From: Ardenticatenaceae bacterium
Lineage (GTDB): Bacteria > Chloroflexota > Anaerolineae > Promineifilales > Promineifilaceae
Direction: 5' to 3'
DNA: 64,000 nt
Assembly: GCA_020634415.1 (NCBI GenBank)
Contig: JACKBT010000019.1
Coordinates: 40,454 to 104,453 of the forward strand
Part shown: piece by piece, positions 6,799 through 25,731 of the stretch
Layout: each line of letters begins with the position of its first letter
Numbering within the stretch: the stretch's first letter is position 1
Notes under the pieces: model-generated
The model's database searches: none
What the model was told of the DNA's origin: nothing
The model's input: only the letters and a program-made list of their open reading frames with translations
Position numbers and translations under genes: made by a program

Positions 6799-6860
6799 AG
6801 ACCCAAAGGGTTTTAGGTCAAGGATATGGCAATGACCAGGGTATAAAACCCTTCGGGTCT
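6799..6860 (-). terminator. AGACCC-type nested hairpin after the helicase gene
   Basis: The outer arms run from AGACCCAAAGGGTTTTA to the near-complement at 6844-6860, and an inner stem GGTCA/TGACC closes the loop. It begins four bases after the helicase stop at 6864 (minus strand). A sequence-related hairpin occupies the same position after another minus-strand gene at 40888-40948, so this is a recurring terminator-like cassette. Confidence 0.55.
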
Positions 6861-6863
6861 CGC

Positions 6864-9800: not shown

Positions 9801-10271
9801 GTAGCCGATGATGGGCGTGTGATAGCTATCACCAAAAAGCAAATAGAGCTTGGCATGAAGGGGATGGCGCAAGAAGAGTTTGACGACGAGTTTGCCTTCA
9901 CGAATGTGTTGGGCTAATCGTTGCAGCCCGGCTTCGTCGGCATTGGTGGGCGCACCGATGGTTAACTGGTTGCGAAATTCGAGGGCGAGTTCTTGGCGTA
10001 GACGAACGGCCGTTTTGTTGTCCATGCGTTCGCCATTTTCGCTAAAAGAGAAGGCGGCTTTGAGTTCGTCTTGGGGACGGCGCTGCATACCCACCAGGAG
10101 CCGCACTTGTGAGCCTTCGCCGCCTGTCCAGGCTTGTACTTTGTCATCAATCTCACGCCAGCCGCGCAAGTTGAAGTAGCCTACGCAGAAGTCGGCCCGG
10201 TAGGAGACGTCCAGGGTGTTACGGAGGGTGGGGAGTAACGGCCGTTCGATGTTATCAAATATTGTCGGCAT
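6864..10271 (-). CDS. PLD-domain SNF2 family helicase
   Basis: The 1135-residue protein has an N-terminal phospholipase-D-like domain with a half-site motif HAKLYLLF and downstream Asn/Ser ([12 protein letters not shown]) near residues 135-160. This is followed by a full SNF2/RapA-type helicase: Walker [10 protein letters not shown] near 282, DESH box near 350, SATPYN motif III, FSQF near 720 and the C-terminal [14 protein letters not shown] with [11 protein letters not shown] near 835. Such helicases translocate on duplex DNA. With the downstream methylase it resembles the helicase-methylase half of DISARM-like and related defence systems. A single HKD-type motif suggests a dimeric PLD nuclease if it is active. 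Confidence 0.88.
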
Positions 10272-10416
10272 AGGCTTGGCTCATATTATTGGCTATCCAG
10301 TACCCAAACACTCCTTCACTTGTTCTGTGACACCACAAAACAATCCATTCAGCCACATTGAGCCAACATTGTAATCAGCAATAGTACGAAAGGCAAAAAA
10401 GGCAACCCTCTCCCAA

Positions 10417-13400
10417 CTAAGGCAATTCCTCCTCCGGCACCGAAGGGTGCGGCGGCAAATTGGGGCAAGTTTGCCGATACGGTATAGTCGGCAAATAAAG
10501 TTGCCATTCTGCCCAAGTAAGGTTCCGAATAGCGCGTTCACAGGCAACAGCCATCAACTGATCTAATCGTGTGTAATATACCTGAATAAATCCATCAATT
10601 GTTATCAGGAGAATTCGATCTTCGCTTTCATTCCAGCGCACATCGGTAATAAATTCCCCATCACCTAGTAATTGTAATAGCAATTCCCCTGTAGCAGCAT
10701 TCCAAACCTTAGCTGTGCCATCACGACTACGAGTCAAGATTTTGCTTTCGTCTTCATTCCATTGGGCTTCTAGCACTTCATCATCATGATGAAAACCATT
10801 TATTAGAATTCCACTTGAAGCATCCCAAAGTTTAGCTGTCCCATCAGTACCGTGTGTCAAAATGAAACTTTCATTTTTATTCCATTGTGCTGAAGCAAGT
10901 CCATTTGCATTGTGGATTAGCATATGTACTAAACTGCCATTCGTTGCATTCCAAAGCTTTGCAGTTCCATCCCAACTGCTTGTAAGGATAAGGCTTTCAT
11001 CGCTGTTCCATATTGCTCCTTTAACCCATCCATTATGAGCAAAAGAATGGATCACATTTCCATTGAAGGCATCCCATTCCTTTATCATTCCGTCTGAACC
11101 ACTTGTTAAGATCCGACTCCCGTCCTCATTCCATCGTGCTTCCAAAATATGCTCTTCATGAGTCAAGGTATATAGTAAAGTACCATCAGTTGCATCCCAA
11201 ACCTTTGCTATTCCTTGTTCTGTTACATATTCTGGATCAGGGGTATAGGTTAATATTAAACCTTCATGCTCATTCCAAAGTCCAATTGCAGGACCATCGT
11301 CATGCTCAAGTGTGTATAATAAACTTCCTGTGTGAGCATCCCAAACTGTGATTAAGCCAGTATTTGGTAAAACCACTCCACTGCCAGCAGGTTCTTCAAA
11401 ACCACCATTTCTTATTAAGATTTTGCTTTCATCCTCGTTCCATAAGGCACCATAGACAGTAGCCTCATGAAGAAATTCCTGTAGCAAAGCCCCCGTCATA
11501 GCATCCCATAATTTCACATACTTGCCGCCATAAGTTAGGATTCGGCTTTCATCTTTGTTCCATTTAGGATTCCAACCACCTCCCGCCTCATTTAGGGTTT
11601 GCAATAATTCTCCAGTCCTTGTATCCCAAATCTGAACCGAATGGTGACCAATGGTCATTATTAAACTTTTATCGTGATTCCATTGAGCGTGTCTGACAAC
11701 ATCCCCTTGAGCGAGGGTGTAAAGTAATGACTCATTTGTTGCATCCCATATTTGGGCAATCCAATTACCTGTAGTCAGGATGCGGCTCCCATCTGAGTTC
11801 CAACTAGCTTCCAGTATACCGCCATCATTATGCAAACCATTCCATAACGCACCATCAGCCACATCCCAGACTTTGACACCACTTCCATCATTGATAAGAA
11901 CTTGATCTCCTGCTTCATTCCACTGGGGTGTGCTTGAATTATTATGAGTAAGAATCTGTAATAAGGCACCGTTGCTTGTGTCCCAAATCTTTGTCTTCCT
12001 GTCATCAAAAGTTAGAATTCGGCTCTCGTTCCTATTCCATGAGGCTCCTCTAATAGAAAGGCCATCATCGTGTATTAAAGTATGCAACAGTGTGCCAGTC
12101 GTTGCATCCCATACTTTAGCTGTTCCATCTTGGCTTACAGTTAAAATGAGGCTCTGATTCGCATTCCATTGTCCTTCATTAATCCTGCTTCCATGATTAA
12201 GAGTGTGCAATAGTTCACCATTGTTCATATCCCATATTGTAGAATCCTGATTACCACTAATTAGAAGCAAGTTCTCATCATTGAATTCCATGTGATCAAT
12301 AAAAGGCGGATGTTCGAGTGTATATAACAGATTCCCGTTGTCAGTATCCCATATCTTGACAATCTGTCCACCTACGGACACGATTAGACTTTCATCTTTG
12401 TTCCAATGTGCTTCCTCAACATTGCTCCACGGTGCTTCTTGTGTATCATCATGAACGAATGAGTTTTGCAGTGTACCACTATTTGCATCCCATACATTTG
12501 TCAAATTCGCACTGACCGTGAGGATTAAAGTTCCGGCTCGGTTCCATTTCGCGTCTCTAATTTCTTCTTGATGCGCAAAGTTGTGCAATAAACTTCCATC
12601 AGCCACGCTCCATACTTTAACCATCTGTGTGCCAAGAGATAACACCATTGTATTATCTCTATTCCATTCAGCTTTCCAGACTCTTTCTTCATGATTAAAC
12701 GTGTGTTGTAGTGAACCATTGTCTGTCTGCCATAGCTTGATGGATTCATCCCCCGCGGTTAGGAGCAGTCGCTCATCACTGCTCCATTGTGCTATTCTGA
12801 CGGATTCTTCATGGTTAAGTGTGTGTAAAAGTGAACCATTGTCTGTCTGCCATAGTTTGATCAACCCACCGCCTACAGTTAAGAGTAAGCTTTCATCACT
12901 ATTCCATTGCGCTGGCCCAACAGACTCGCCATGAAAAAATGTTTGCTCAAGAGACCAATTACTCGTGTTCCACACCTTTGCTGTGCCATCAAAACTGTAA
13001 GTCAAAAGAAGTGCTTTATTGTTGTTCCATTGAGTTCCCCTGATTGAACTTTCATGAGCGAGATTAGTTTCTGGCTTGGCCATAAGCGGCAGTTGGTTGT
13101 GGAGGACGGTAAACGCTTGTGTGGTTGTTGCCATGCGACCAGCTTCAATCGCTAATAATAAAGCTCGCATATCATCTTGGCCGCGAACCTCTTCTGAATT
13201 TACGGCTAGGGCTTGAGATATGGAAATAGCAGCTTGCATTTCAGCATCATCACGAGCTTCATTTGCTTGCACTACAGATGTAGCTCGTGCATCAGACTCT
13301 ATCACCACTAAGTTAAGTGCTGCTATAGCTGTAGCTGCTATATTTTCATTTTCTTCCGCTAATTGGGCATTTTGGTTGGCTGTCTCTTCATTATCTTCAG

Positions 13401-15402
13401 CCAATTGGAAGTTTTGGGTTGCTTGAGCAACAGCAGTACCAGCTATATTTTCATTTTCCTGGGCTAATAGTGAATTCTCAAGTGACTGACCTTGAAATAT
13501 GGAAGTCGCTATGATCAAGCTAATAATAATGAAAATGACAACGACACCTACAGTGATATTGCGTAGGCGTTTGATGGTGGCTTCGCGTTTTTGTTGTGCT
13601 TGACTCTTCTCGATAAAAGCGTGTTCAGCTTGGCTTAATTGATCATGATGTGTTTCAAACCAATCAGCGGCAGCGGCTAAGAGACTACCTTGCAGTAGGT
13701 CGTTATCATCTTGGGTCATTTGCCATTGGCGTAAGATAACCCGCAGTTGTTCTTGCCAAATACGGAAAGCACGGTCTTGGTTCAACCAACTTTGTAGCTG
13801 CCCCCAACGTTGGATCAGAGCTTCATGGGTCACTTCGGCTGTTTCCTGCTCCGTCTCGTCCCGTCCCGTCACAATCAGGCGGTGCGTCGCTAATTGTTGA
13901 ATCAATGCCCAGTCCGCCTTGCTCAACTCGGTCCGCAGTGCCACCCGCCGTGTGTCCTCCATGCCTTGCCCCGGCTGCACAAGCTGCCCAAATATGTATT
14001 GGGCGCGGTCTTGTTCTTCTGGTGATAGTGCATTGTAAACCTGGTCAGCATAAGTAGCCAAAGCCCCTGAAATATTACCAATTTCTTCATAGGCCATATG
14101 GGTCAATTGCCTATTGCTGGGACGTTCCCAAAGCAGGTCAAGCGCAAATTGCAGCAAAGGTAATGAACCAGGTTGCGCTATTACATCCTCCAGAATGCGT
14201 TCCACCAGCCCTGCCTCAAATGTCACATTGAGGTCAGTCGCCGGTTGGACAATGGCTTGGCGCAGCTCCTCTGGGGTCATAGGCCCTAGTTTCAGGTCAT
14301 TTCCTTGCAAGGCATCAGCCAACGGCCGGTAGGCCAGGGCTTGCCCCAGAAAGTCCGCTCGCAAAGTCAGCAGCAAGTGGCAGTTAGGGCTAGTCGTTGC
14401 CGCCAGTAGCAGGTCAAGAAAGCGGTGTGGTGGGCTGGTCTCTGATGTGAGGGTATATAGTTCCTCAAACTGGTCAACAATGAGCAGGAAGTGGGTTTGG
14501 GAATGTTTTTCCAGAATCCGTTGCAATATGTCAGCCAGAGTCAGTTCAGCTTCCTGCCAATCAGCCGCCAGATGTCGCTGTTCCTTGAGCCGTTCCCGTT
14601 CGCTCATACCTGCTTCTAGCAGGGGCAGTAATGCCGCCGCCAGGGTTTGGTAAGGCTGCCCTCCAGGACGAAGGGTAGCAGTTAGCCAGTCACCTTGCTT
14701 TTGTAGTTGTGCCAGCAAACCAGCCTGCACTAACGAAGATTTGCCGCTACCGGAGGGGCCGAGGAGAGCGACGAAAGGCTTGCTTTGCACAGCTTCCAGC
14801 AGTTGTTGGGTATACCGTTCGCGGCCGAAGAAGCGATCCACATCGGTAATGGTGAAGGCATGGAGTCCTTTGTAGGGGGAAGGAGGATGGGGATGCAGGG
14901 GAGCAGAGGGGATGAGGAGCGGGGGGGAGAGTTGGTCGGCGGTAGTGTGGATATTGTACTGAATGCCGATGACGGTGGCACCGGATTGGGCTTCGCCGAC
15001 ATGTTGTTTTATATCTGTATGGGATTTGGGAGAGGGGTCTTTGGGTGCAGGGAGCAAGTGATCAATGGGCAATGGGCGATTGTCAATTGTCAATTGAAGT
15101 TGGTCAGTGAGGATGTGGAGGTCTTGGTGGCAGGCGGTGGCAGGGTCTTGGCGGTCGGCCAGAACGTGGAGGAGGTTGATGAGGGCGTTGTGGCCGTCAG
15201 CGGTTTGTTGTTGGGAAAGGAGGCTGATGAGGCTTTCGGCACGTTGTCTGGGGCTACCAGCGTCAGGAATTTCGTCAGCCCAAGGGCTAATGCGCTCATC
15301 GGTGAAGATGACTTGCAGCTCTGCCTGATTGGCAAAGGGGCCGCAGCGCAGCAGGGTGCTGACGAGTTGGTTGCGAAGGTCGGATGGAAGGCCGTAACTC
15401 AC
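10417..15402 (-). CDS. EAD-nSTAND NTPase-WD40 protein, about 20 WD units
   Basis: A 1661-residue STAND-type protein. Residues 1-105 form a small helical domain like the effector-associated domains of bacterial conflict systems. A low-complexity linker leads to an nSTAND1 module starting PYKGLHAF, with Walker A GPSGSGKS near 215 and a Walker B-like LLIVDQFEE. One hydrophobic segment follows near 615-637, then an Ala/Glu/Asn coiled stretch. From about residue 775 to 1615 there are about 20 units of roughly 40 residues ending in KVWD-like motifs, enough for two or three propellers. The C-terminus (LTWAEWQLYLP) is typical of such proteins. Known relatives sense a ligand with the WD part and activate an effector. 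Here an obvious enzymatic effector is missing, so EAD-mediated recruitment of a partner is inferred. Two adjacent WD units are nearly identical in DNA at a 120-bp spacing. Confidence 0.85.
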   Translation of the reverse strand: MSYGLPSDLRNQLVSTLLRCGPFANQAELQVIFTDERISPWADEIPDAGSPRQRAESLISLLSQQQTADGHNALINLLHVLADRQDPATACHQDLHILTDQLQLTIDNRPLPIDHLLPAPKDPSPKSHTDIKQHVGEAQSGATVIGIQYNIHTTADQLSPPLLIPSAPLHPHPPSPYKGLHAFTITDVDRFFGRERYTQQLLEAVQSKPFVALLGPSGSGKSSLVQAGLLAQLQKQGDWLTATLRPGGQPYQTLAAALLPLLEAGMSERERLKEQRHLAADWQEAELTLADILQRILEKHSQTHFLLIVDQFEELYTLTSETSPPHRFLDLLLAATTSPNCHLLLTLRADFLGQALAYRPLADALQGNDLKLGPMTPEELRQAIVQPATDLNVTFEAGLVERILEDVIAQPGSLPLLQFALDLLWERPSNRQLTHMAYEEIGNISGALATYADQVYNALSPEEQDRAQYIFGQLVQPGQGMEDTRRVALRTELSKADWALIQQLATHRLIVTGRDETEQETAEVTHEALIQRWGQLQSWLNQDRAFRIWQEQLRVILRQWQMTQDDNDLLQGSLLAAAADWFETHHDQLSQAEHAFIEKSQAQQKREATIKRLRNITVGVVVIFIIISLIIATSIFQGQSLENSLLAQENENIAGTAVAQATQNFQLAEDNEETANQNAQLAEENENIAATAIAALNLVVIESDARATSVVQANEARDDAEMQAAISISQALAVNSEEVRGQDDMRALLLAIEAGRMATTTQAFTVLHNQLPLMAKPETNLAHESSIRGTQWNNNKALLLTYSFDGTAKVWNTSNWSLEQTFFHGESVGPAQWNSDESLLLTVGGGLIKLWQTDNGSLLHTLNHEESVRIAQWSSDERLLLTAGDESIKLWQTDNGSLQHTFNHEERVWKAEWNRDNTMVLSLGTQMVKVWSVADGSLLHNFAHQEEIRDAKWNRAGTLILTVSANLTNVWDANSGTLQNSFVHDDTQEAPWSNVEEAHWNKDESLIVSVGGQIVKIWDTDNGNLLYTLEHPPFIDHMEFNDENLLLISGNQDSTIWDMNNGELLHTLNHGSRINEGQWNANQSLILTVSQDGTAKVWDATTGTLLHTLIHDDGLSIRGASWNRNESRILTFDDRKTKIWDTSNGALLQILTHNNSSTPQWNEAGDQVLINDGSGVKVWDVADGALWNGLHNDGGILEASWNSDGSRILTTGNWIAQIWDATNESLLYTLAQGDVVRHAQWNHDKSLIMTIGHHSVQIWDTRTGELLQTLNEAGGGWNPKWNKDESRILTYGGKYVKLWDAMTGALLQEFLHEATVYGALWNEDESKILIRNGGFEEPAGSGVVLPNTGLITVWDAHTGSLLYTLEHDDGPAIGLWNEHEGLILTYTPDPEYVTEQGIAKVWDATDGTLLYTLTHEEHILEARWNEDGSRILTSGSDGMIKEWDAFNGNVIHSFAHNGWVKGAIWNSDESLILTSSWDGTAKLWNATNGSLVHMLIHNANGLASAQWNKNESFILTHGTDGTAKLWDASSGILINGFHHDDEVLEAQWNEDESKILTRSRDGTAKVWNAATGELLLQLLGDGEFITDVRWNESEDRILLITIDGFIQVYYTRLDQLMAVACERAIRNLTWAEWQLYLPTIPYRQTCPNLPPHPSVPEEELP

Positions 15403-15560: not shown

Positions 15561-15692
15561 TTGAAACAGATGTGCTACGTGGTATCATTGTCGTACGTTA
15601 TGAGAACGCTGATAACTATGTGGGAGAGTAATTTGTGTAACGGCCGTTGATACTTTGGTGTTAACGGCCGTTTTTATTTGAGGAATCCAATT

Positions 15693-16724
15693 ATGGCTGA
15701 AAAAGAAGACGATGAAGTATCAAGAATGAGAGAGGTTGGAATCTTACCCGAAAGCGGCAGAATAGAATTAGATAATTTGCCAGAATGGCAATCTCAATCA
15801 GCAGCCGAAGAATTTGAAATATTGTCTAGATATGACGGTTGGAAAAAGGCTTCTGAAGCTTTGCCCACTAAAGAGGGTGCAGAATTCAGTCATTTATTGC
15901 CTTCGATTAATGCTCAAGGGGCTGAGTTTCCATTAGCTGTAGACATCTTGAAAGCAAAAGATGATGACCCGCCACCACCTTCTCATCTTATGGATATACC
16001 AACGCCTTTACCGTCCGGTGGGACAGAGGTCTTGTTAATTCAAGTTAAAGGTGGGTCAGTTAGTCAAGTTGAGGATGTACTAGATGAGTTTAGTATGATG
16101 AATAGACCTCATTACCACTTGATTAGGCATGGCGACCCTGGTTACTGGTATATTCGTATTTTTGCAGATAATGATGAGAATAAAAAAGCAGAGGCTTTGC
16201 TCGAAACAATCAAGCGTGGCGTTTTGCGAGAAGCTAGTACAGCACGAGCCCAATTTGAGAGAAGGTCTGTCAAGGTTGGCTATGTAGTGATAGGAGATCG
16301 GCCTGTAATACCACTTCGTTTTTTTGCACTGGATGAACAATATAAGGATAGAATTAGGTTTTTAGCTCAAGAGGTAGGAAATGAACTGGTAAAATGGGGA
16401 TTTACTCTGGTTGACGGTAGTAAGGTTGCGAATAGAAAAGGTGAGCAGACGAGCGTAGCTGCCGCTGAAGACGAAGCCACACCACATAAAGGTAAAAAAC
16501 GGAAACGCGGCCCAAATATAGCTACAGTAGTAAGGCTGGAAGAGTTAAGAAAAAAACGCGAGGAATATAGAGCAAAGGATGGCAAAATAAATATCTCAAG
16601 AACACAAGCTTGTCAGCTTGTAGGCATTGACCCTGGGACTGTAAGGGTAAACGATCCTGAATTATGGGGAAAATGGGACATTAAGGAATTTTATAGTGAC
16701 AAGCATACAGATACATCTGCATAG
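15693..16724 (+). CDS. Unknown protein of mobile element, 343 residues
   Basis: The ATG at 15693 (MAEKEDDEVS) follows GAGG by eight bases; an in-frame TTG at 15678 is less likely. The protein is acidic at the N-terminus, has a central alpha/beta-looking region (VLLIQVKGG, then GYWYIRIFADND), and ends in a basic segment (HKGKKRKRGPN) followed by a helical region with RTQACQLVGIDPGTVR that resembles an HTH. It may bind nucleic acid. No family is recognised. It is the first plus-strand gene after the defence block and stands apart from the replication operon. Confidence 0.65.
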   Translation: MAEKEDDEVSRMREVGILPESGRIELDNLPEWQSQSAAEEFEILSRYDGWKKASEALPTKEGAEFSHLLPSINAQGAEFPLAVDILKAKDDDPPPPSHLMDIPTPLPSGGTEVLLIQVKGGSVSQVEDVLDEFSMMNRPHYHLIRHGDPGYWYIRIFADNDENKKAEALLETIKRGVLREASTARAQFERRSVKVGYVVIGDRPVIPLRFFALDEQYKDRIRFLAQEVGNELVKWGFTLVDGSKVANRKGEQTSVAAAEDEATPHKGKKRKRGPNIATVVRLEELRKKREEYRAKDGKINISRTQACQLVGIDPGTVRVNDPELWGKWDIKEFYSDKHTDTSA

Positions 16725-16755
16725 AAAGAAGCTAAAACGAAAACTTTTGTGCGAA

Positions 16756-16792
16756 AAACGCTATAAATATTTCTTTTACAGCGTTTCTTGTT
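16756..16792 (+). terminator. Weak stem-loop after the 343-residue gene
   Basis: AAACGCT at 16756 pairs with AGCGTTT at 16780, followed by a T-rich tail (CTTGTTTTC). It lies about 30 bases after the stop at 16724 and is a plausible but short intrinsic terminator. Confidence 0.4.
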
Positions 16793-16822
16793 TTCTGACC
16801 GTATTTTGCATTAAGAACGGCG

Positions 16823-16848
16823 GGATTTAAGGAATTTAAGGAATTTCC
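16823..16848. promoter_or_regulatory. Tandem GGAATTTAA repeats upstream of the RHH operon
   Basis: Three head-to-tail units, GGATTTAA, GGAATTTAA and GGAATTTCC, lie about 85 bases upstream of the ribbon-helix-helix gene start. RHH proteins commonly autoregulate by binding short tandem repeats, and plasmid replication origins use similar iterons. Either role would fit. The repeat is seen directly; the function is inferred. Confidence 0.4.
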
Positions 16849-16876
16849 GTACAACAAAATCTGACATTATTTATAC

Positions 16877-16916
16877 TGCCCCACAATTGGTAATTGCTCC
16901 GATTGTGGGGCATTTT
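16877..16916 (+). terminator. Strong stem-loop in the leader of the RHH operon
   Basis: TGCCCCACAAT pairs perfectly with ATTGTGGGGCA across a 14-base loop and is followed by TTTT. It ends about 17 bases before the RHH start codon, so it could act as an attenuator or as the terminator of an upstream transcript. Confidence 0.6.
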
Positions 16917-16932
16917 AATTTACGAGGTTGTA

Positions 16933-17136
16933 ATGACACGATTAGGTACGTTCACGTTTCGAGTAGATGATGATGAAAAGCAATTGATAGCAGCTTTGGC
17001 AGCCAGGTTGCAACGTAATCAGTCGGACACTATGCGCTTGTTGCTGAGAGAATCAGCTCAAGCTTTAGGAGTGATTGGACAAGATAAAAAATCAATTCTC
17101 TTGCAGGAGGTGCAACATGCAGAAACCCCAAGTTGA
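16933..17136 (+). CDS. Ribbon-helix-helix DNA-binding protein
   Basis: Starting at the ATG at 16933, six bases after GAGG, the 67-residue product begins MTRLGTFTFRVDDDEKQLIAALAARLQRNQSDTMRLLL split across a beta strand and two helices, the classic RHH/CopG pattern (strand, helix, turn with Ser-Asp, helix). It probably represses the replication operon or acts in copy control or partition. The gene overlaps the next start by 20 bases. An in-frame earlier ATG at 16894 lies inside the leader hairpin and is unlikely. Confidence 0.7.
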   Translation: MTRLGTFTFRVDDDEKQLIAALAARLQRNQSDTMRLLLRESAQALGVIGQDKKSILLQEVQHAETPS

Positions 17137-17356
17137 TCAGGAAGCACTGGCGTTGGCACGTTGTTATGCCTTGCTAATTCGCAAAGCACAGGAACATCAG
17201 ACAGAACTGGCGGCACAGGCAGCCACGGAAAACGCCGAATCTGATGCCATCAATAGTATAGATGATGAGCATGTAGAGCTTGACAGTGCAGTTGATACAT
17301 TACAAGAGGCTGGGGCTGTCGAAAGCCCTCGAGAAATAGTGGAGGTACAAAGATGA
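17117..17356 (+). CDS. Small acidic protein of replication operon
   Basis: The ATG at 17117 follows a GGAGG by five bases, inside the end of the RHH gene. The 79-residue product is helical and acidic (TENAESDAINSIDDEHVELDS), without Cys clusters or membrane segments. Its TGA overlaps the ATG of the following HTH gene, so translation is coupled. No family is recognised. It could be an accessory factor of the RHH or replication proteins. Confidence 0.6.
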   Translation: MQKPQVDQEALALARCYALLIRKAQEHQTELAAQAATENAESDAINSIDDEHVELDSAVDTLQEAGAVESPREIVEVQR

Positions 17357-18090
17357 GTATCAAAGCTATGAATGCTGTCTGGCAGAACTCCCAACAGAAA
17401 GGTTCCCGTCGTTTGATATTGATTGCGCTGGCCCACTTTGCTGATGCAAACGGCCGTAACTGCTATCCAAGCCTAAAGACGATAGCCCAAATGGTGAATT
17501 TATCGGTGCGCCAAGTGCAAAGCAACATCTTGGCTCTTGAGCAATCTGGGGAAATTAAGATCGAGCGGGGAAACGGCCGTAGCCGTTCCAATCAATACGA
17601 CTTATCCCTTTTAATAAAAGGTGAAGGAGGGTTCACTGTTTCTGAACCAGAAAGGGCGAAGTCTAACGCAAAAAGGGTGAAGTCTAGCGCAAAAAGGGTG
17701 AAGTCTAGCACCCAAAAAGGTGAAGGTAACTTCACCCGATCTGAGAATGATCTTTTAAAAGACTCAAAAGATAAGAGTGGAGCAGCAAGTGAATCACGGC
17801 AAATAGATTTTCCCTCTCACTTGGATACCCAAGAGTTTAGAGATATATGGCTGCGCTGGGAACAACACCGAAAAGAAGCCGGAGCACCAGTGAGTGCCAC
17901 GATGCGAAACGAGTTGTTACGTGAAGCAGCGAAGCATACGGCTGAAGATGTATGCTGGTTGATTAGTTTGTCCATCCAGAATGGCTGGAAAGGCCTCTTC
18001 TGGGAAAGATTAGATAAGCGCAGGAATTCTGCTAGTGTATCCAAACAGGGTACGACCACCGATATTGTTGCGCACAAATTTGGAGTTTGA
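17353..18090 (+). CDS. Winged-helix replication initiator-type protein
   Basis: The 245-residue protein begins with an HTH_36-like winged helix (residues 1-85): ALAHFADANGRNCYPSLKTI, AQMVNLSVRQVQSNI, then the wing with IKIERGNGRSRSN. This architecture is common in phage and plasmid initiators that pair with a DnaC-type loader, which is the next gene. A central Lys/Ser-rich stretch repeats AKRVKSS-like units (encoded by near-identical AAAAAGGGTGAAGTCTAGC repeats at about 17670-17720). The C-terminal ~90 residues are helical and DnaD-like in position. The start overlaps the previous stop as ATGA. Confidence 0.75.
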   Translation: MSIKAMNAVWQNSQQKGSRRLILIALAHFADANGRNCYPSLKTIAQMVNLSVRQVQSNILALEQSGEIKIERGNGRSRSNQYDLSLLIKGEGGFTVSEPERAKSNAKRVKSSAKRVKSSTQKGEGNFTRSENDLLKDSKDKSGAASESRQIDFPSHLDTQEFRDIWLRWEQHRKEAGAPVSATMRNELLREAAKHTAEDVCWLISLSIQNGWKGLFWERLDKRRNSASVSKQGTTTDIVAHKFGV

Positions 18091-18091
18091 C

Positions 18092-18820
18092 ATGAAACAT
18101 ATTCGTAACATTCTCGATGATTCAAATCCTATTCACACACATGAGGAAACTCCTCAAGTTAGGGAACAACCAATTCGTGGTTTTCAAGCAATCTCACTTG
18201 ATCAGTTTCGTTTCGATCACTTAACAACAGAAGAACAAGTTGATCGGCTTAGGAACGCTCTGGAAAAAGCTCGTGATTGGAACACAGCATGTCGCCAGCA
18301 GCCTGGTCTTAGCTTTTGTATCACTGGAGGTGTGGGGACAGGAAAAACAACCATTGCTTATAACCTGATGCAACCCTTTACCGAACAGGTTTTTCCAGAA
18401 GGTTTGCCAGATGTCCAGTCGGAATATTTGAAAGGTCGGCTTTTTGAGGCCACAGAACTTATGAAAATATTAGATGACGATCTGCCTATAAGTCATCACT
18501 TTAAGCACTATGAAATCATTGTTGTTGATGATGTTGGCACCGAAGAAATCCCTTTTGCTACTGAGAGAAATGAGACCACCAAGAGACAAAATCGTTACGG
18601 CCGTTTCTTCGACTATTGTTACAAGACGAAAAAGCATCTTGTAGTGACATCAAATGTACCACTTATCACTCAAACTTCTAATGGGTATGAAATAGATTCT
18701 GCGTTCATGGAGATTCTGGGTGAGAAGGCACTTGATCGTCTTTACCAGATGGGCAAGGGGTATATGTGCGATCTAACAGGCTTGCCCAGCTACCGTCGGT
18801 ACATCGTCAAAGACACATGA
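18092..18820 (+). CDS. DnaC-like helicase loader ATPase
   Basis: ATG at 18092, one base after the previous stop, with GGAG upstream, gives 242 residues. The AAA+ core has Walker A GGVGTGKTT near residue 85 and Walker B IIVVDDVGTEE near 150, with sensor-1-like VVTSNV near 190, as in DnaC/IstB proteins. It would load the replicative helicase at the element origin together with the upstream winged-helix protein. The length agrees with DnaC homologues. Confidence 0.85.
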   Translation: MKHIRNILDDSNPIHTHEETPQVREQPIRGFQAISLDQFRFDHLTTEEQVDRLRNALEKARDWNTACRQQPGLSFCITGGVGTGKTTIAYNLMQPFTEQVFPEGLPDVQSEYLKGRLFEATELMKILDDDLPISHHFKHYEIIVVDDVGTEEIPFATERNETTKRQNRYGRFFDYCYKTKKHLVVTSNVPLITQTSNGYEIDSAFMEILGEKALDRLYQMGKGYMCDLTGLPSYRRYIVKDT

Positions 18821-18837
18821 GGTATGAGAAAAGAATC

Positions 18838-19044
18838 ATGAACAAACCACTAGACTATGGACAAGTTGCCTTCCCTCCACAAATGAATGATTTGGAGATC
18901 GAGCAAACATCTCAATGGATTTATTGTTCACACTGTGAAGAGATGTCACCAGATTTAGAGGATTGTCCTATTTGCGAAGATATGCGGAATATTCAAGCTG
19001 AACCAGATTATGAGCCATATGTGCCAAGACAATGCCCCAGTTAG
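18838..19044 (+). CDS. Small double-CxxC zinc-ribbon protein
   Basis: The product of 68 residues contains CSHCEEM and, 13 residues later, CPICEDM, a likely zinc ribbon. It follows the loader gene by 17 bases. An ATG at 18817, overlapping the loader stop, would add seven residues. Small zinc-ribbon proteins occur with replication modules of phages and plasmids. The specific role is unknown. Confidence 0.6.
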   Translation: MNKPLDYGQVAFPPQMNDLEIEQTSQWIYCSHCEEMSPDLEDCPICEDMRNIQAEPDYEPYVPRQCPS

Positions 19045-19195
19045 GCCAATAACAATGATTTCCGTATTTAGTTTTCTGGCGAAATAGTTTGTATGCAAAT
19101 AAGCGGCTTCTGATTTAGAAGACCTTTAGAACTTTGATAATTGTATAGTTGTAGGGCTGGATTGCGTCCGAAGAGTAAGAGGATAGAATTTCTTC

Positions 19196-19393
19196 ATGGT
19201 TGAAGATTGGATCACGACAGCTGAAGCGGCCGCAATAAGCGGTTATCATCCTGTTTATCTACGTGAGTTGATACGGGATGGCAAAATCCGCGGACGGAAA
19301 TGGGGAGCTGCGTGGCAGGTAAGCCGAGAATCATTATTGGCTTATTTGCACGAGGCCACAAGTGCCGAAGATAAACGACGGGGACCAAAATAG
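19196..19393 (+). CDS. Excisionase-like MerR/HTH_17 DNA-binding protein
   Basis: The 65-residue protein begins DWITTAEAAAISGYHPVYLRELIRDGKIRGRKWG in the pattern of helix-turn-helix and wing used by excisionases (HTH_17, AlpA/Xis-like), with WQVSRESLLAYL closing the domain. It is on the integrase strand, 1.6 kb upstream, and is a good candidate recombination directionality factor for the serine recombinase, or a transcription regulator. No strong ribosome binding site is seen before the ATG at 19196. Confidence 0.75.
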   Translation: MVEDWITTAEAAAISGYHPVYLRELIRDGKIRGRKWGAAWQVSRESLLAYLHEATSAEDKRRGPK

Positions 19394-19425
19394 GTATTGG
19401 GGGTAGCATCTTCCTCAAAAATCTG

Positions 19426-19431
19426 TATAAT
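19426..19431 (+). promoter_or_regulatory. Consensus -10 box TATAAT for candidate RNA gene
   Basis: A perfect TATAAT at 19426 stands immediately upstream of a stem-rich non-coding segment that ends with an intrinsic terminator. The -35 region is weak (GTAGCA about 17 bases upstream). Confidence 0.5.
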
Positions 19432-19436
19432 ACCTT

Positions 19437-19595
19437 TCGGTATTGAAAGGTATTTAGTCCAAAAAACGGGTCACGAGAGTGCTGGTAACACTGATCGTGA
19501 CCCTGACCTAACCGCCAAAAGAGGCTTGGCGCTAGGCTGAACCCATTTTACTCGATGGGGCAACCCTACGCACATAAGGCGGGGTTGCCCTTTTT
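19437..19595 (+). ncRNA. Candidate structured small RNA, about 160 nt
   Basis: Between the TATAAT box and a T-rich terminator there is no start-bearing reading frame of note but a series of stems: ACCTTTCGGTATTGAAAGGT at the 5' end, GGGTCACGA/TCGTGACCC (19468-19503) with an inner AGTG/CACT, CGCCA/TGGCG (19513-19531), CCCAT/ATGGG, then the terminator. It does not match tmRNA, 6S or SRP RNA signatures that I know. It could be a regulatory antisense RNA for the element's replication or a leader. The boundaries are inferred. Confidence 0.45.
19558..19595 (+). terminator. Intrinsic terminator with 9-bp GC stem
   Basis: GGGCAACCC at 19558 pairs with GGGTTGCCC at 19582 and is followed directly by TTTTT. 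This is a textbook Rho-independent terminator, upstream of rather than after a protein gene. Confidence 0.75.
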
Positions 19596-19752
19596 GGTTT
19601 CATGGGATGAAACAGCTCTGCCGCTTGCTTGGTGGTAGGGCTGTTTTGTTTATGGAGGTGGCTATGAGGTAAGTGAAAAGGAGTTAAAAGATGGGGTAGG
19701 GAAACGGCCGTTTCCCTTGCCCCGTTACGAAACAAAGGAAACGGCTCGAAGG

Positions 19753-19792
19753 GTAAGCAATCCCAAAGTGTGGAAGCGAGGGGATTGCTTAC
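19753..19792 (+). promoter_or_regulatory. 12-bp perfect inverted repeat before membrane protein gene
   Basis: GTAAGCAATCCC at 19753 and its exact complement at 19781 flank a 16-base loop and end 16 bases before the start codon at 19809, next to its ribosome binding site. It may sequester translation or be an operator. The 19596-19752 stretch also holds the 18-bp palindrome GGGAAACGGCCGTTTCCC near 19701. Confidence 0.5.
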
Positions 19793-19808
19793 TAGAGGAT
19801 TATACAAC

Positions 19809-20564
19809 ATGGAAAACATAACCAAATGGTTATTGGTGCTTTTCGGGGCATTGGTCGTTTTGCTCAATGCCGCCGAGACTGCCTTGTTTGGGGCTACTTA
19901 TCTACCAGCTGCTTTTGGCAATCCGAATAATGGTCTGAGTGCTTTACTAGCAGCGGGCTATGTGCTGCTGATGTTGGATGTAGCTTATGTGATCTGGTTC
20001 AAGGTGTGGCTGTCGGGGGAGCAAGCCACAGCCCAGCGGGACACCGCGTTGGCATTGGCCGTCTTGTCGCTCATCGGCTCCATCATGGCGACGGTGACAC
20101 AGTTGGCAACCAACACGACATTGGCCCCTTATCTCATTCCTTATCGCGCCACTATTGGCACGATTGCCTTCTTCATCATTTTGGCGGTGACAGTGGCTCA
20201 CATTGTGGGGCTGGCGGTCTACAAGTATTCCGAGCCAGACCAGCAGATAGCGACCAAGACGGCCAAGATTCAAGGTACGGTTATCAAACAAGCCTTGAAG
20301 GAACTGGAAACCAGAGCCAATGAGGATAAGGATGTGCTGGTAGACATTTTAGCCAAGGAATTCCGTGTAGATATGCTCAATGCGTTGGGCTTTAGCCAGA
20401 AACTCACGCGAATTGGCAAGCAACAAGCTCTACTCGCCGAACCTAATGAAGATGAGGATGAAGACGGCGAAGGCTACGACTTGGACACATTAATTGATTA
20501 TCTGGTTGAGGAGCGGTTGCGGGAACGGACAAGCCCTTCAACTAATGGTGCGCCGACGAGGTAA
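19809..20564 (+). CDS. Four-helix membrane protein of mobile element
   Basis: ATG at 19809, with GAGGA upstream, gives 251 residues. Hydrophobic segments lie near residues 6-30, 45-70, 80-103 and 115-140, followed by a long cytoplasmic helical tail that ends in an acidic run (EDEDEDGEGYD). No catalytic motif is visible. Membrane proteins at this place in integrative elements are often entry-exclusion or conjugation accessory factors, but no conjugation gene is in the window, so the role is open. Confidence 0.65.
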   Translation: MENITKWLLVLFGALVVLLNAAETALFGATYLPAAFGNPNNGLSALLAAGYVLLMLDVAYVIWFKVWLSGEQATAQRDTALALAVLSLIGSIMATVTQLATNTTLAPYLIPYRATIGTIAFFIILAVTVAHIVGLAVYKYSEPDQQIATKTAKIQGTVIKQALKELETRANEDKDVLVDILAKEFRVDMLNALGFSQKLTRIGKQQALLAEPNEDEDEDGEGYDLDTLIDYLVEERLRERTSPSTNGAPTR

Positions 20565-20963: not shown

Positions 20964-22339
20964 ATGACTGAAAAAGCAGTTTTATACGCAAGGGTGAGTG
21001 GTGATGATAGCAAGTATGCAACATCCGGCATTGATAGCCAGTTAGAGGACTGCCAAAAGTACGCTAAGGAAAAGGGCTACATAATTGTAGGCAAGTTTTT
21101 TGAAGAAAAAGACCGGCAGACATCTGGTGCAGTCTGGTTGCCTGAATTGGAAAAGGTCTTGAAGTTGGCGGAACAAGAGGCATTTGATGTGTTGGTTGTA
21201 CGCGAGGTAGATAGATTAGCACGTAATCGGTTTAAACAATTGTCCGTAGAAAACAGTTTGGAATCATGTGGAATCAAAGTCGAATACGTCATCGGCCAAT
21301 TCGAGGATTCAGCATCGGGACGGTTATTGAAAGGAATGATGGGGGAGTTTGCAGAATTTGAGCGGGAACTCATTAGAGAGCGAACAATTCGCGGCATTGA
21401 AAACTCGGTAAGGGCGGGTAATGTCAGAATTGGGGGAAGTAATGCGCCATATGGTTATGATATTGTCAAGATAAACGGCCGTCGTACATTGAAGGTTAAT
21501 GAACAGGAAGCAGCAGTGATTCGCTTAATGTTCGATCTATATGTAAATCATCACTACAGTCTAAACAGCATTGTCAATTATTTGAATAAGCATAATGTGC
21601 CAAAACCATCAAAAGGCAACAACCATAAAGCGGCTCAACACAAGACCAGGAAACTAGGGTGGGGAATTGGAACACTGTATGCAATGTTCTGTAATGAAGT
21701 TTATGTGGGTCGCTGGTATTATCGTAAGACTAAGCAAATCAAAGATCCTAAGACTGGCAAAAAAATGCGTGTCAAACGTCCCAAAAGTGAATGGATACTA
21801 GTAGAAGTGCCCGGAATTTTGAGCGAGGAAATTTTTGACAAAGCAACTGACCGTTTAGAAGAAAATAGGCAAAAAATGGGTAAGCATCGCAAATACTTTT
21901 ATGCGTTGGGTGGTATGCTCAAATGTGGTCATTGTCAGAAAAGCATGACAGGTCTCACTTTTGTTAAAGGCAGATTACGGGGTCAACATTACTTGTGTAA
22001 TGCAACCCATAATCACAAACGTTATGGATATAAATGTGATAATGCTACTTATTGTGCAGAAGACGTTGAGAATAGTGTATGGTTTTGGATTAAGTCAATC
22101 CTACTTTCCCCTAAACAACTTAGCGATGCCTTGGCTCAATATCAAGAAAAACAGTTGGCAGTTCAGGAACCTGTTCAGCGGATGATTGCAGCTAATCGGG
22201 AAAAGCTGAATGATTTTATAGGTGAGAAAAAGCGTTTAGTTAAGGCATATAAGGCTGGTATACTTGAACTGGATGACATTGCTTCGGAAAAAACTGAACT
22301 AGACAAAAATATTCATGAGTTACAGGAAGCGATAGGGGC
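20964..22339 (+). pseudogene. Large serine recombinase, 5' part, interrupted by IS
   Basis: The N-terminal catalytic domain has the nucleophile serine in YARVSGDD (residue 12), then VVREVDRLARN and the GEFAEFERELIRERT helix. The Recombinase domain follows, and a zinc ribbon with CGHC and a later C..C pair near residues 318-360, then a coiled coil. The frame continues artificially to 22406 inside the inserted IS. Precise removal of the two IS, keeping one copy of each duplication, joins this part to 23820-23840 and 25319-25559 in frame and gives 545 residues, a normal length. The missing tail is the end of the coiled-coil and C-terminal DNA-binding region, so the current product is probably inactive. 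Confidence 0.9.
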
Positions 22340-23813
22340 CACTAACTTTGCAGATTTCACTCAGAGGCTTGCTCCGGTAAGTTCGAGATATAAATCGGCA
22401 GGCTGATAGCCAAGTCTGAATTTCTGATGAAGCCAATCAATAAAATGACACCAATGAATCGCCTGTACTTGACGCCAAGCATCACCAATAGTGGTGTGTC
22501 GGCCAGTCTGCTGCTGCTGTCGATACCGCTCTTGGTCAAGAAAGTAGTAAGCAGCCATAACCAAAGTCCAGAAGCGACAAATGGCATTGGCGGTCATCAG
22601 CTGGTATTGGTCCAAGCCCAGAATCTCTTTGGTATCAGCAAAAAGTACCTCAATATCCCATCGAGTAGCAATATGCTGCAACAACAGGTCACGATTGGCC
22701 GTCAAATCAGACGAGGCCCAGAAACGAATCTTGTCTTTTTTGTCTTCCTCTTCAATCTGACCTCGAATGATGACCAGTTGAGCCTTGTACAACTTCTTGA
22801 TGCGGGTTGTTATCACATGAATATAGACCCATCGCTCTTGGTTACTGGGCCAGCGGACATAGTGCCAATCGGCCTCAGACAAACTGTGAGCATATTCATC
22901 CACTCGTTGCCAATACCAACCCTTTCTCCGCCTGGGAGTCTTCTATACGGAGGTAACGATTGCATTTGAGACCGCTGGTGATAAGAAACCCCGTTGCCGA
23001 GCCGTGCGCCAAATCCGTTTGCACGTGTACCAGGTATCCAACAAGACATGGTTACCGTATCGGGTACTGGCTCAAAGGTGGCGATGTTTTCTACCATGAG
23101 GTCAATCTTGCTGGCAAAAGGAATGCCTTCATCTGCACAGACAGCTTTTTGCCGATACATCTGCGGCGGCAAAGGACAACGCTGTCCCAACAAGAGGTAC
23201 AAATCCCTGTACCAAACTATGTCCTGTAACCCGTTTGCCCTCTGTGCTAGAGTGATGTCGTCCCAAGCCTTCCATCTTTTGCCTCGTTCTTGCTTATGGT
23301 CGAGTCATCCCCTATCAAGTAACCTGTCACGACGGTTTTCTTAGGTCTGCCCCTTCCTTACCACGACGCTTTCGCTTCAATCGGACTTGTTCTGCTTGGA
23401 CTTGTCTTCTCATCTCTTGCTGGAATTGGTCTTGCCAGCCCTGGCTAACATCTTCAGCCGACCATGGGTGCTTGGCTCATAAAACGGCTCACTCCCGACA
23501 AACTAATCGAAGCTGTCACCTGGCGCAACAAGCCCGTCATTGTCCCACTTCCTTGGTTCAACATCAGCCCCAGCAGTATGATCACGAAATACTTGAACTG
23601 GGGCTGACTAAAACAACCACGAAATTGGCTCAAATAATGGCGCAACCGTTCATCCAGACATATGATTGGCATTCGCATAGCTCACCTCGAGTAGTTGATT
23701 GTTTTTTGCTAACCATCTTCTACCTCAAGGTGAGTTATGTGGCTACTATTTCATTGGTTATGTGTTATTTTTATCAATTCCTTGTTATGTCAATGAAATC
23801 TGCAATCTTAGTG
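22340..23813 (-). mobile_element. Insertion sequence A (IS4/IS701-like), degenerate transposase
   Basis: The ends are 20-base inverted repeats (CACTAA..TTGCAGATTTCA) that match at 18 of 20 positions. They are flanked by the direct duplication AGGGGC at 22334-22339 and 23814-23819. The element is 1474 bp. It lies in the recombinase gene at the codons for Ile-Gly-Ala. The transposase is on the minus strand and has several frameshifts. The family is judged by transposase appearance only. Confidence 0.85.
22361..23678 (-). pseudogene. Frameshifted DDE transposase of insertion sequence A
   Basis: The N-terminal part (23678-23454) reads CFSQPQFKYFVIILLGLML and the C-terminal part (22903-22361) reads ATRWDIEVLFADTKEILG, the E-containing end of a DDE fold. 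Between them, pieces such as HVLLDTWYTCKRIW and FLITSGLKCNRYLRIE appear in different frames, so at least two or three indels have broken the gene. The stop TGA lies near the left inverted repeat. Confidence 0.8.
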
Positions 23814-23840
23814 AGGGGCGCTAGAAAGTGAACTTAATTA

Positions 23841-25312
23841 CCTAAATTTGGCGCAAATTAGCGACAGTTCCATCACGAGCCAAGAAAGAAGCAAAGGCAG
23901 TGATGAAAGCAGCAGCTAAATCATACGCTTGATTGAGTGAAATTTGAACAAGATGACCATGAGCATCAAAAGAAATACGCCCAGGGATATGAAAAGCATC
24001 CCGCACCATACGCAACATACCAAACTGTTGGAGTTTGGCTCGGCAAGAGGCCAAGCCATTCCGCACCCAACTGATCACATTGTAAGCCAGTTGCCCCAAC
24101 AAGAGGAGCATTTCTTGGGCGTGAAAAGATTTTTTGTTGCGTTTGGTGATGCCCAAACCTTGTTTAGAACCTTTGATAGCTATCTCCACAGCGCCGCCGC
24201 GCAGGTCATAAGCGTAAACAGCCAACCAGATGGGGTCAGCGGGAGAGGCCAACGGCCGTTTACCTTGTTGGTTGAGCCAGCCAAGTTGGTCATCATCAAG
24301 ATTGAAGACCAGAATAGCTGTGCGCCATTTACCTTTCTTGGTTTGACAACGGACAGCCAGTTGGCGGGTTGGCTGGTCATAAGCAAAGGGTGTTTCCACC
24401 CAGCCTGCTTGGCGACGAGGGTCTTTGGGATCTGTGTGCCAAGTCTCAACAGTGGTCACCAATTTCTCGACACGCTTCCAGTGAGTGACTTTGACCAGCA
24501 ACTGATAACGCTGTTGCAGCAGCCAGTTGATGTCGCTGTCATTGCCACCGCCGCCATCAATGCGCAGGATGGTTCGTTTACGAAAACCAGGATTGAGATT
24601 CAGGACAGTTTCAGCATCAGCCACCAGTGCCAGCAAGCTGCGATTGAGTTGCGTCTTGCCGCAATAGAGCCGTTCAGTGACGATTTCATCATACAAGGTG
24701 GCATAGACCCGTCCCAATTGTCTACCTCGTTTGTTCTTTTGCTTGGCAAAATACCCTTTCTCAACCCCATCCCCCTGGCGACCAGCAGGCATCCCACTCA
24801 TATCAATATCCAACAATTGCCAACTGCGACCATAATCATGGCGATAGCCTGCGCCATATCGTTGATAGATGATCGCCATCGCCTGCCGCATCTGCTCTAT
24901 ATTGTCTGCCTGACAAGCATTCAAAGTGGTGCTGACACCCGACTGGTCAGCACACCTCTGCCGTCCGAAGGCTGCCGACAACCCAGCATCTGTTTTGACC
25001 CGTTGATTCACTTCCACGATGCCCTCTCCACCAGCCATGATATTGATAAAGGCATCCTGCAATTTTTGCAGCGGCGTGTGAATCACTGTTTTCTGTTGGA
25101 TTTTGACCTGTTGCCCGATCATCTGCCAGATCCCCATTTGTTGCATGTTCATGCCCACGATAGCCAAACTAGCCCGTGGCGAATAGCTGATACAATTGTT
25201 CATGATGACAGTTCTCCTTCTGCAAGTGTTTGGTTGCTACTTACATTCTTGCTGAGAAAACTGTCATCGTCATCTTTTTATGACTTGTACCCTTATTGGT
25301 ACAAAATTTAGG
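23841..25312 (-). mobile_element. Insertion sequence B with intact transposase
   Basis: Inverted ends CCTAAATTT.. at 23841 and ..AAATTTAGG at 25312 are flanked by TAATTA on both sides (23835-23840 and 25313-25318). Because the duplication is itself palindromic, the exact edge may shift by one or two bases. It lies 27 bases right of insertion sequence A, in what was the same recombinase codon run. Length about 1472 bp. Confidence 0.85.
23842..25203 (-). CDS. DDE transposase of insertion sequence B
   Basis: The 453-residue protein looks complete. Acidic residues fit a DDE fold: LLDIDMSGMPAG near residue 122, ILRIDGGGGNDSDINWLL near 218, and a later VEIAIKGSK region. A conserved KGYFAKQKNKRGRQLGRVYA block follows the first Asp. 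The stop codon sits inside the left inverted repeat and the start lies 110 bases inside the right end. The family may be IS1380-like (ends beginning CC, short duplication), but I am not certain. Confidence 0.82.
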   Translation of the reverse strand: MNNCISYSPRASLAIVGMNMQQMGIWQMIGQQVKIQQKTVIHTPLQKLQDAFINIMAGGEGIVEVNQRVKTDAGLSAAFGRQRCADQSGVSTTLNACQADNIEQMRQAMAIIYQRYGAGYRHDYGRSWQLLDIDMSGMPAGRQGDGVEKGYFAKQKNKRGRQLGRVYATLYDEIVTERLYCGKTQLNRSLLALVADAETVLNLNPGFRKRTILRIDGGGGNDSDINWLLQQRYQLLVKVTHWKRVEKLVTTVETWHTDPKDPRRQAGWVETPFAYDQPTRQLAVRCQTKKGKWRTAILVFNLDDDQLGWLNQQGKRPLASPADPIWLAVYAYDLRGGAVEIAIKGSKQGLGITKRNKKSFHAQEMLLLLGQLAYNVISWVRNGLASCRAKLQQFGMLRMVRDAFHIPGRISFDAHGHLVQISLNQAYDLAAAFITAFASFLARDGTVANLRQI

Positions 25313-25318
25313 TAATTA

Positions 25319-25559
25319 CAAGTTGTTAACCCAGGAAGAAATCAGAACAGTTGAATCGTATGCGGCTGAAATACGCAAAGGGGCAGATTTAACAGACAAT
25401 GATCCGAAGGCACAGCGAGAGATTTTTGAATTGTTGAATGTACAGGTGACTCTTACTTGTATTGATAGAGAAAAATGGGCTGATATTGTTTGTATTTTAG
25501 GCGAAAAGCACTTACCAACAAATTCTAATACAGCACGGTGTAACGATAGTTGTAAATGA
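25319..25559 (+). pseudogene. Large serine recombinase, 3' part
   Basis: After the right TAATTA, the sequence encodes LLTQEEIRTVESYAAEIRKG and AQREIFELLNVQVTL, the typical end of a large serine recombinase (helix, then the ELLNVQV strand motif). In the restored gene the junction reads ..AIGALESELNYKLLTQEE... The last eight or so codons and the TGA lie on DNA that, on the other strand, encodes NUDIX residues. The integrase therefore ends at the attachment site and its tail depends on the chromosomal target. Confidence 0.85.
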
Positions 25560-25731
25560 GAACCACATCGCCGTTAGCAAGAACAGGCACAATCCAAACG
25601 GCCGCTTCCTTTTCCACCACGTTATACACCCCCGGCTGGCCGTTGGGGGTAATGATTTCATCCTGGCGAATGCGATACCAGGGGGATGACCAGGCGATGC
25701 GGGAGGATAGGGTTTGGTAGGGTTTTTTCAT
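25525..25731 (-). pseudogene. NUDIX hydrolase, N-terminal fragment at element junction
   Basis: The fragment begins MKKPYQTLSSRIAWSSPWY and continues with IRQDEIITPNG and VWIVPVLANGDVVLIYNYRYT, the usual N-terminal strands of ADP-ribose pyrophosphatase-like NUDIX proteins. It stops three residues after RYT, before the NUDIX box (GX5EX7REUXEEXGU) that should follow. The C-terminal half is not found in this window. It lies 66 bases from trpF on the same strand. Loss by element integration is the simplest explanation. Confidence 0.8.
25528..25552. other. Likely attR region of the element
   Basis: NUDIX similarity (minus strand) ends between the RYTV codons and the following CTG TAT TAG at 25525-25533, while the recombinase frame (plus strand) closes at 25559. 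The crossover should therefore lie near 25530-25545, around CACGGTGTAACG. The core cannot be fixed without the left end. Confidence 0.5.

What the first reader, a model, noticed from the sequence alone, without database searches (positions are those of the whole stretch)
20964..25559. Integrase gene split by two insertion sequences; removal restores a 545-codon frame
The 5' part ends at IS A (inverted repeats of 20 bases, duplication AGGGGC). A 21-base gene remnant follows (23820-23840), then IS B (duplication TAATTA), then the C-terminal part. Keeping one copy of each duplication leaves 1376 + 21 + 241 = 1638 bases, exactly 546 codons with the stop, reading AIGALESELNYKLLTQEE across both junctions. 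The element was mobile, then was immobilised by two independent insertions only 27 bases apart.
Basis: seen in the sequence. Interest (0 to 1): 0.8.

Follow-up and report, generated by a model that had tools for sequence, protein, structure and literature searches.

The report
Integrase gene split by two insertions
A mobile DNA element has had its integration enzyme gene cut in two places by two small jumping elements, and the gene's far end runs into the host gene that the element landed in, so the enzyme's last few codons appear to be host DNA.

Summary
Confirmed base by base. A large serine integrase gene (20964-25559) is interrupted by a decayed IS701-like element (22340-23813, duplication AGGGGC) and, 27 bp on, by an IS1380-like element (23841-25312, duplication TAATTA). 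Of 120 listed homologues, 105 match both end pieces; in 97 of 105 the spacing is exactly the 6 residues predicted. Both breaks fall near the end of the coiled coil's return helix. By itself this is ordinary IS damage.

In relatives, the open frame of a recognisable host gene overlaps the integrase 3' end at 19 of 30 loci, and the homology itself reaches over it at 15 of 30. In 5 of 6 relatives with both ends found, an intact, diverged copy of the broken gene lies beside the far border. The window's far end was not seen. The family pattern is the more interesting result; the recA island of Vibrio cholerae is a published precedent for the carried copy.

The parts
20964..22339 (+). 5' part of a large serine integrase gene (458 codons plus 2 bases): catalytic, recombinase and zinc-ribbon domains and most of the coiled coil
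22334..22339 (.). left copy of the 6-base duplication AGGGGC of IS A
22340..23813 (-). IS A, IS701-like; transposase broken over several frames; 20-base terminal inverted repeats 90% complementary
23814..23819 (.). right copy of AGGGGC
23820..23840 (+). 21-base remnant of the integrase gene between the two ISs (its last 6 bases are the left TAATTA)
23841..25312 (-). IS B, IS1380-like; transposase ORF 23842-25203, 453 aa, open
25313..25318 (.). right copy of TAATTA
   Evidence: 6-base length from the frame
25319..25559 (+). 3' part of the integrase gene; the last ~26 bases, stop included, are host DNA
25534..25731 (-). N-terminal part of a NUDIX-like host gene cut at the element border (68-aa ORF 25525-25731); homology to intact relatives stops at 25534
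   Evidence: the fragment itself has no Pfam match
15678..20564 (+). genes before the integrase, probably the element's own: 17353-18090 replication-initiation O-like, 18035-18820 DnaC-like helicase loader, others without a useful family match
1934..15402 (-). possible cargo (not proven to lie in the element): type IIG restriction-methylation protein 2686-6684, HKD+Snf2 helicase 6864-10271, nSTAND1-WD40 protein 10417-15402

Best explanation
An integrative element entered the chromosome of a bacterium, probably a Chloroflexota, by large-serine-integrase recombination inside a NUDIX gene. The crossover lies at or inside the 3' end of the integrase gene, so the integrated gene reads into host DNA for its last ~8 codons and stop (shown by NUDIX homology up to 25534; the exact crossover bases are inferred). 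An IS701-like and an IS1380-like element then inserted 27 bases apart near the codons for the end of the coiled coil's return helix, separating the last ~80 residues from the rest (shown). The gene can no longer make the full integrase, so the element most likely cannot excise by its own enzyme (inferred). The lack of other damage in the first 458 codons says that the breaks are recent or that the 480-aa frame still makes a useful product (inferred). The order of the two insertions is not known.
For: Spacing of the pieces in homologues, 97 of 105 exactly 6 residues. Duplications and terminal repeats. IS families. Integrase domains; nearest solved structures are large serine integrases (SPbeta YokA, Bxb1, phiC31). 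Model of the uninterrupted relative P0001 (mean pLDDT 84.9, pTM 0.54): coiled-coil helices 380-427 and 433-464; by the alignment the breaks lie near residues 454-456 and 461-463. Border: NUDIX homology runs to residue 66 of 68 (25534), and the 20 best of 80 matching genomes, all 20 fetched, read on into the rest of the NUDIX protein; the matching tail of P0001 has pLDDT below 50 (533-547); G+C is 0.45 at 20-22.5 kb and 0.56 at 25-27.5 kb. No decay of the N piece: 4 deviations at 86 highly conserved positions against a median of 2 (38 of 98 relatives have 4 or more).
Against: The other part of the NUDIX gene was not found in the window (tblastn of two intact relatives; one weak match, E 0.005, inside an 876-aa ORF on the host side at 43268-43453), so the far end was not seen and a deletion is possible. 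The fall in integrase conservation at the border is not sharp: 0.24-0.37 in the five columns before 25530, 0.49 at 25530, then 0.22 and 0.14. G+C left of the border varies from 0.44 to 0.57. The C piece has only 1 column fit for the decay test. No genome is held for the window. A decayed IS A inside an undecayed gene fits a long stay there poorly, unless it arrived already broken.
Confidence: 0.9

Rival explanations
1. Assembly artefact: the IS copies joined unrelated contig pieces.
For: ISs are repeats, and the window's genome and reads are not available.
Against: Two exact 6-base duplications, and three gene pieces whose order, frame and spacing match 97 of 105 homologues.
Confidence: 0.04
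2. The 480-aa 5' frame is kept as a working shortened recombinase, so the insertions modify rather than kill the function.
For: No stop or frameshift in 458 codons and conserved positions kept; all three Pfam domains present; coiled-coil-deleted LI integrase keeps about 2% activity (PMC10754689, passages).
Against: The closing strands and the end of the coiled coil are missing; phiC31 integrase without its coiled coil is inactive (same passages). A recent break explains the lack of decay equally well. 106 of 120 listed relatives are at least 520 aa; whether the short ones are natural was not tested.
Confidence: 0.1
3. The 3' end does not overlap host DNA; the NUDIX-like reading on the other strand is chance.
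For: The fragment has no Pfam match by itself.
Against: Intact relatives match at up to 73% identity over 64 residues; 20 of 20 fetched ones continue past the border; relatives at other loci show the same geometry with other host genes (15 of 30).
Confidence: 0.03

Closest known systems
Large serine integrases (SPbeta YokA, Bxb1, phiC31, A118/LI)
   Same: Same domain order; best sequence match among solved structures is YokA (9dxh, E 6.6e-38); SPbeta-type serine integrase complexes also lead the fold search (global TM-scores only 0.38-0.45).
   Different: Broken here by two ISs; its 3' end lies on the border, so the tail and stop are host DNA.
Large serine recombinases that integrate in conserved coding genes (Durrant et al. 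2022, PMC10083194; 12 of 24 matching passages seen)
   Same: Targets are conserved coding genes; Mg-chelatase is a frequent target there and is the target at L082 here.
   Different: The passages seen do not mention host-supplied integrase tails or element-borne copies of the target gene.
recA genomic island of Vibrio cholerae S24 (PMC4405046; abstract and section 6 read)
   Same: An element that breaks a host gene and carries a divergent intact copy of it.
   Different: Another phylum and target; only the principle is shared. Its integrase was not compared with this one.
IS701 and IS1380 families
   Same: IS A and IS B match the NCBIfam models.
   Different: Both are below the NCBIfam cut-offs (65 of 150 bits; 101.6 of 180). 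A 6-base duplication for IS B differs from the 4-5 bases that I recall for IS1380 (recalled, no call).

Membership tests
large serine integrase | N-terminal resolvase domain with catalytic serine, recombinase domain, zinc-ribbon domain | tested here: met
   Three Pfam domains over cut-off; S12 among the invariant columns; that S12 is the nucleophile is recalled
large serine integrase | coiled-coil hairpin in the C-terminal region | tested here: met
   model of the uninterrupted relative P0001; in the window both insertions fall near its end
large serine integrase | recombination between attP and attB | not testable with these tools
   only the right border is in the window
IS701 | matching transposase, terminal inverted repeats, target duplication | tested here: inconclusive
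   E 7.2e-18 but below the cut-off; transposase decayed
IS1380 | matching transposase, terminal inverted repeats, target duplication | tested here: inconclusive
   E 3.7e-29 over positions 9-407 of 419 but below the NCBIfam cut-off; PF13701 over its cut-off
elements that carry an intact copy of the gene they break | intact copy of the broken gene inside the element at the far end | not testable with these tools
   far end of the window's element not seen; met in 5 of 6 relatives with both ends found

The most novel reading that the evidence does not exclude
A family of Chloroflexota integrative elements places its attachment site inside the 3' end of its own serine integrase gene, so each integration gives the integrase a new host-coded, unstructured tail and stop. 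The family lands in conserved host enzyme genes and usually carries a divergent intact copy of the gene it breaks next to the far border. The tail swap could mark the integrated state of the enzyme; the carried copy makes the break harmless and lets the element replace host alleles. The window's element is a member whose integrase was later broken by two ISs, and its unseen left end should carry an intact NUDIX gene.
Probability: 0.45. Interest if true: 0.65.

Novelty: new variant of a known kind. Interest (0 to 1): 0.42.

Why it matters
The split gene alone is ordinary. The border matters more. It names the target gene of this element, shows that part of an annotated integrase C-terminus can be host DNA, and leads to relatives in which an element breaks a conserved gene and brings its own copy. 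That makes allele replacement by mobile elements in an understudied phylum directly testable, and warns users of serine integrases that natural C-terminal tails may be accidents of the landing site.

Tried and rejected
Searching the window's own genome for other IS copies and for the NUDIX rest failed because no genome is held. A DNA search of 298 genomes of one class found only partial matches to IS B (8 of 298) and IS A (7 of 298); only 2 candidates a genome were scored; the best was 90% over the last 121 bases of IS B, twice in G002. Ten of eleven window ORFs left of the integrase, the replication genes among them, have no tblastn match in L001-L026, L074 or L075 at 1e-5 (hits of the eleventh, 10417-15402, were not printed), so the type of element stays open. 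A tRNA attachment site was rejected (0 tRNAs in the window).

Results against the family pattern. Carried copy: L001 (aldo/keto reductase) has both halves about 11 kb apart and no intact copy between; the nearest others in G001 are 51% identical or less. G010 RecQ has no second full copy and its far end was not found. The diphosphomevalonate decarboxylase genes of G013 and G007 look complete; G013 has a second copy at 41%. Tail: of 19 loci whose host frame overlaps the integrase end, the matched family stretch does not reach the integrase in 4 (L008 by 16 bases, L076 by 7, L080 by about 200; L014 cannot be told because its domain ends earlier). 11 of 30 loci show no host gene over the integrase end (L002, L004, L007, L013, L019, L023, L025, L026, L081, L083, L084); Pfam scans of frames near that end were made for 9 of the 11, L007 and L083 not; genes found there start beyond the stop (L002, L004, L019, L084).

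Full report
WHAT WAS CHECKED. I tested the interruption without rebuilding the gene. The piece 20964-22337 (458 residues) found 577 homologues at E<=1e-3, of which the best 120 are listed; 106 of the 120 are at least 520 aa, and the six rows that name an organism are Anaerolineae, Chloroflexi or Ardenticatenaceae. The N piece and the C piece (25314-25556) were aligned separately to those 120: 105 match both, and in 97 of 105 the matches are exactly 6 residues apart, the number coded by the remnant with one copy of each duplication. The exceptions are 5 at 8, 1 at 7, 1 at 10 and 1 at -145 residues. Five of 106 homologues of at least 520 aa lack a C-piece match. 20 shuffled C pieces gave 0 hits.

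THE TWO INSERTIONS. IS A (22340-23813) is IS701-like (E 7.2e-18, below the cut-off); its transposase is spread over several frames with stops. IS B (23841-25312) is IS1380-like (E 3.7e-29, below the NCBIfam cut-off; PF13701 above its cut-off) with an open 453-aa transposase. Neither has a second copy in the window. Two contigs of G002 begin inside an IS B relative (90% over the last 121 bases) and end it at the same base as here, followed by TAACTA and TAGTTA. With TAATTA here this suggests a TANNTA target; the frame kept in homologues excludes the only other duplication length that fits (2 bases). The N piece shows no other damage: 4 deviations at 86 columns conserved in at least 90% of 98 relatives, which themselves have a median of 2 and a range of 0-29, 38 of them having 4 or more; the C piece has only 1 such column. 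So the breaks look recent, or the remaining frame is still useful. A decayed IS A inside an undecayed gene suggests that IS A arrived already broken (inference). The order of the insertions is not determined.

WHERE THE GENE IS BROKEN. A model of the uninterrupted relative P0001 from a 52-sequence alignment (pLDDT 84.9, pTM 0.54) shows the coiled-coil hairpin (380-427, 433-464), then helices and three strands (505-531), then a tail with pLDDT below 50 (533-547). By the alignment the two breaks map near 454-456 and 461-463, the end of the return helix. The nearest solved structures are SPbeta YokA, Bxb1 and phiC31 integrase complexes. In published single-molecule work a coiled-coil deletion leaves about 2% activity in LI integrase and none in phiC31 integrase (PMC10754689, passages). 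'Immobilised' is therefore likely but not certain.

On the minus strand 25731 to 25534 encodes the first 66 residues of a NUDIX-like protein. Of 298 genomes of one class, 80 have a match at 1e-6; the 20 best loci (L027-L046) were fetched and 20 of 20 read on past the point where the window stops. The integrase frame ends at 25559, so its last 26 bases lie in host DNA. Three weaker signs agree. Integrase column conservation is 0.49 at 25530 and then 0.22 and 0.14 at 25533 and 25536, though the five columns before 25530 are already at 0.24-0.37. The matching tail of P0001 is disordered. G+C rises from 0.45 (20-22.5 kb) to 0.56 (25-27.5 kb), though it varies from 0.44 to 0.57 further left. The rest of the NUDIX gene was not found in the window; the only other match worth telling (E 0.005, 28% over 62 residues, 43268-43453) lies in an 876-aa ORF on the host side. 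The element thus reaches past the window's left end or has lost that part. The genes left of the integrase (a replication-initiation-like protein, a DnaC-like loader, a type IIG restriction protein, an HKD-Snf2 helicase and an nSTAND1-WD40 protein) are probably element genes, not proven.

IS THE BORDER GEOMETRY GENERAL? Relatives came from genome contigs (22 loci), viral contigs (4) and further integrases in the same genomes (9 stretches). Thirty loci have a complete integrase 3' end and at least 300 bases of flank; L006, L016, L020, L022 and L024 were dropped. In 19 of 30 the open frame of a recognisable host gene overlaps the integrase 3' end (L012 is below the Pfam cut-off): L001 aldo/keto reductase, L003 ABC ATPase, L005 and L010 radical SAM, L008 MFS, L009, L011, L018, L080 and L015 class-V aminotransferase-like, L012 and L021 pseudouridine synthase, L014 and L077 DUF255, L017 RecQ, L082 Mg-chelatase, L076 CobU, L078 and L079 diphosphomevalonate decarboxylase. 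Frames can run on by chance, so I recounted by where the homology itself ends: it reaches 8-143 bases over the integrase end in 15 of 30, and not, or not decidably, in L008, L014, L076 and L080. In 16 of the 19 the gene is cut at the border (for L014 this rests on its likeness to L077); L076, L078 and L079 look complete. Against an intact copy, host homology covers the last 62, 143 and 56 bases of the integrase frame in L021, L009 and L011. Targets recur: L009, L011, L080 and L015 are cut at positions 200-204 of the 371 of PF00266, and L018 at position 222 of the SufS model, as L009, beside a YK or HK that I take, from memory, to hold the PLP lysine. In the other 11 no host gene was found over the integrase end (see Tried and rejected).

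THE CARRIED COPY. For six elements both ends were located. In five an intact copy of the broken gene lies inside the element, 77 to about 1,340 bases from the broken half at the far border: RluB in G013 (one contig, element about 115 kb; halves match 36-166 and 168-285 of the copy's 298 residues), the aminotransferase-like protein in G007 (18-238 and 237-435 of 437) and in G008 (10-239 and 232-431 of 433), DUF255 in G008 (30-297 and 294-708 of 713) and the ABC ATPase in G003 (37-157 and 155-376 of 381). The copies are 55-95% identical to the halves. Four of the five (all but G013) span two contigs each, so that both ends belong to one element is inferred from the matching halves. DUF255 and ABC were examined after the first three, as a check. 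The sixth, L001, has both halves about 11 kb apart (its C-half is cut by the contig start) and no copy between. RecQ in G010 has no second full copy, and its far end was not found.

COMPARISON WITH WHAT IS KNOWN. Integration of large serine recombinases in conserved coding genes, Mg-chelatase among them, is published (PMC10083194, passages). A recA island that carries a divergent recA is published (PMC4405046, abstract and section 6). Ten literature searches ran. Those aimed at stop codons or tails over attP (56, where 15 of 967 papers were listed, and 76, 8 papers) and at carried copies (57, 77, 87, 88) showed, in titles and abstract starts, no host-supplied tail of a serine integrase and one carried-copy precedent, the recA island. 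Passages of two papers were read: one is not relevant (PMC3516476), the other tells of haloarchaeal proviruses with a CDS over attP that exists only in the circle (PMC7911831), a related idea. The library is open-access only, so absence here is weak evidence.

VERDICT. The finding is real and correctly measured; by itself it is an ordinary IS-split integrase. What raises its interest is the border next to it and the family pattern it exposes, which this window supports on one side only.

Noticed in passing
25534-25559: The last ~8 codons and stop of the integrase frame are the antisense of a bisected NUDIX gene: the right border of the element lies in the integrase 3' end.
   Followed up: yes
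L021/L071/L072 (G013), L009/L067 (G007), L011/L068 and L077/L085 (G008), L003/L092 (G003): Five relatives carry an intact divergent copy of the host gene they break, just inside the far border; a sixth (L001) does not.
   Followed up: yes
L009, L011, L018, L080, L015: Five loci are cut at about the same position of class-V aminotransferase-like genes, next to a YK/HK motif; orientation differs in L015.
   Followed up: partly
L012 and L021: Two integrases sit at the same profile position (74 of 152) of a pseudouridine synthase gene in opposite orientations; the L012 match is weak.
   Followed up: partly
1934-15402: Likely defence genes: type IIG restriction-methylation protein with a Schlafen AlbA_2 domain, HKD+Snf2 helicase; also an nSTAND1 protein with WD40 repeats.
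   Followed up: partly
17353-18820: Replication-initiation O-like protein and DnaC-like loader upstream of the integrase, suggesting an element that replicates when excised.
   Followed up: no
L069 and L070 (G002): Two contigs begin inside an IS about 90% identical to the end of IS B; the next bases read TAACTA and TAGTTA, pointing to a TANNTA target.
   Followed up: partly
L078, L079, L076: Integrase 3' ends overlap or abut the 5' ends of seemingly complete same-strand genes (diphosphomevalonate decarboxylase, CobU), as if the element supplies a new gene start.
   Followed up: no
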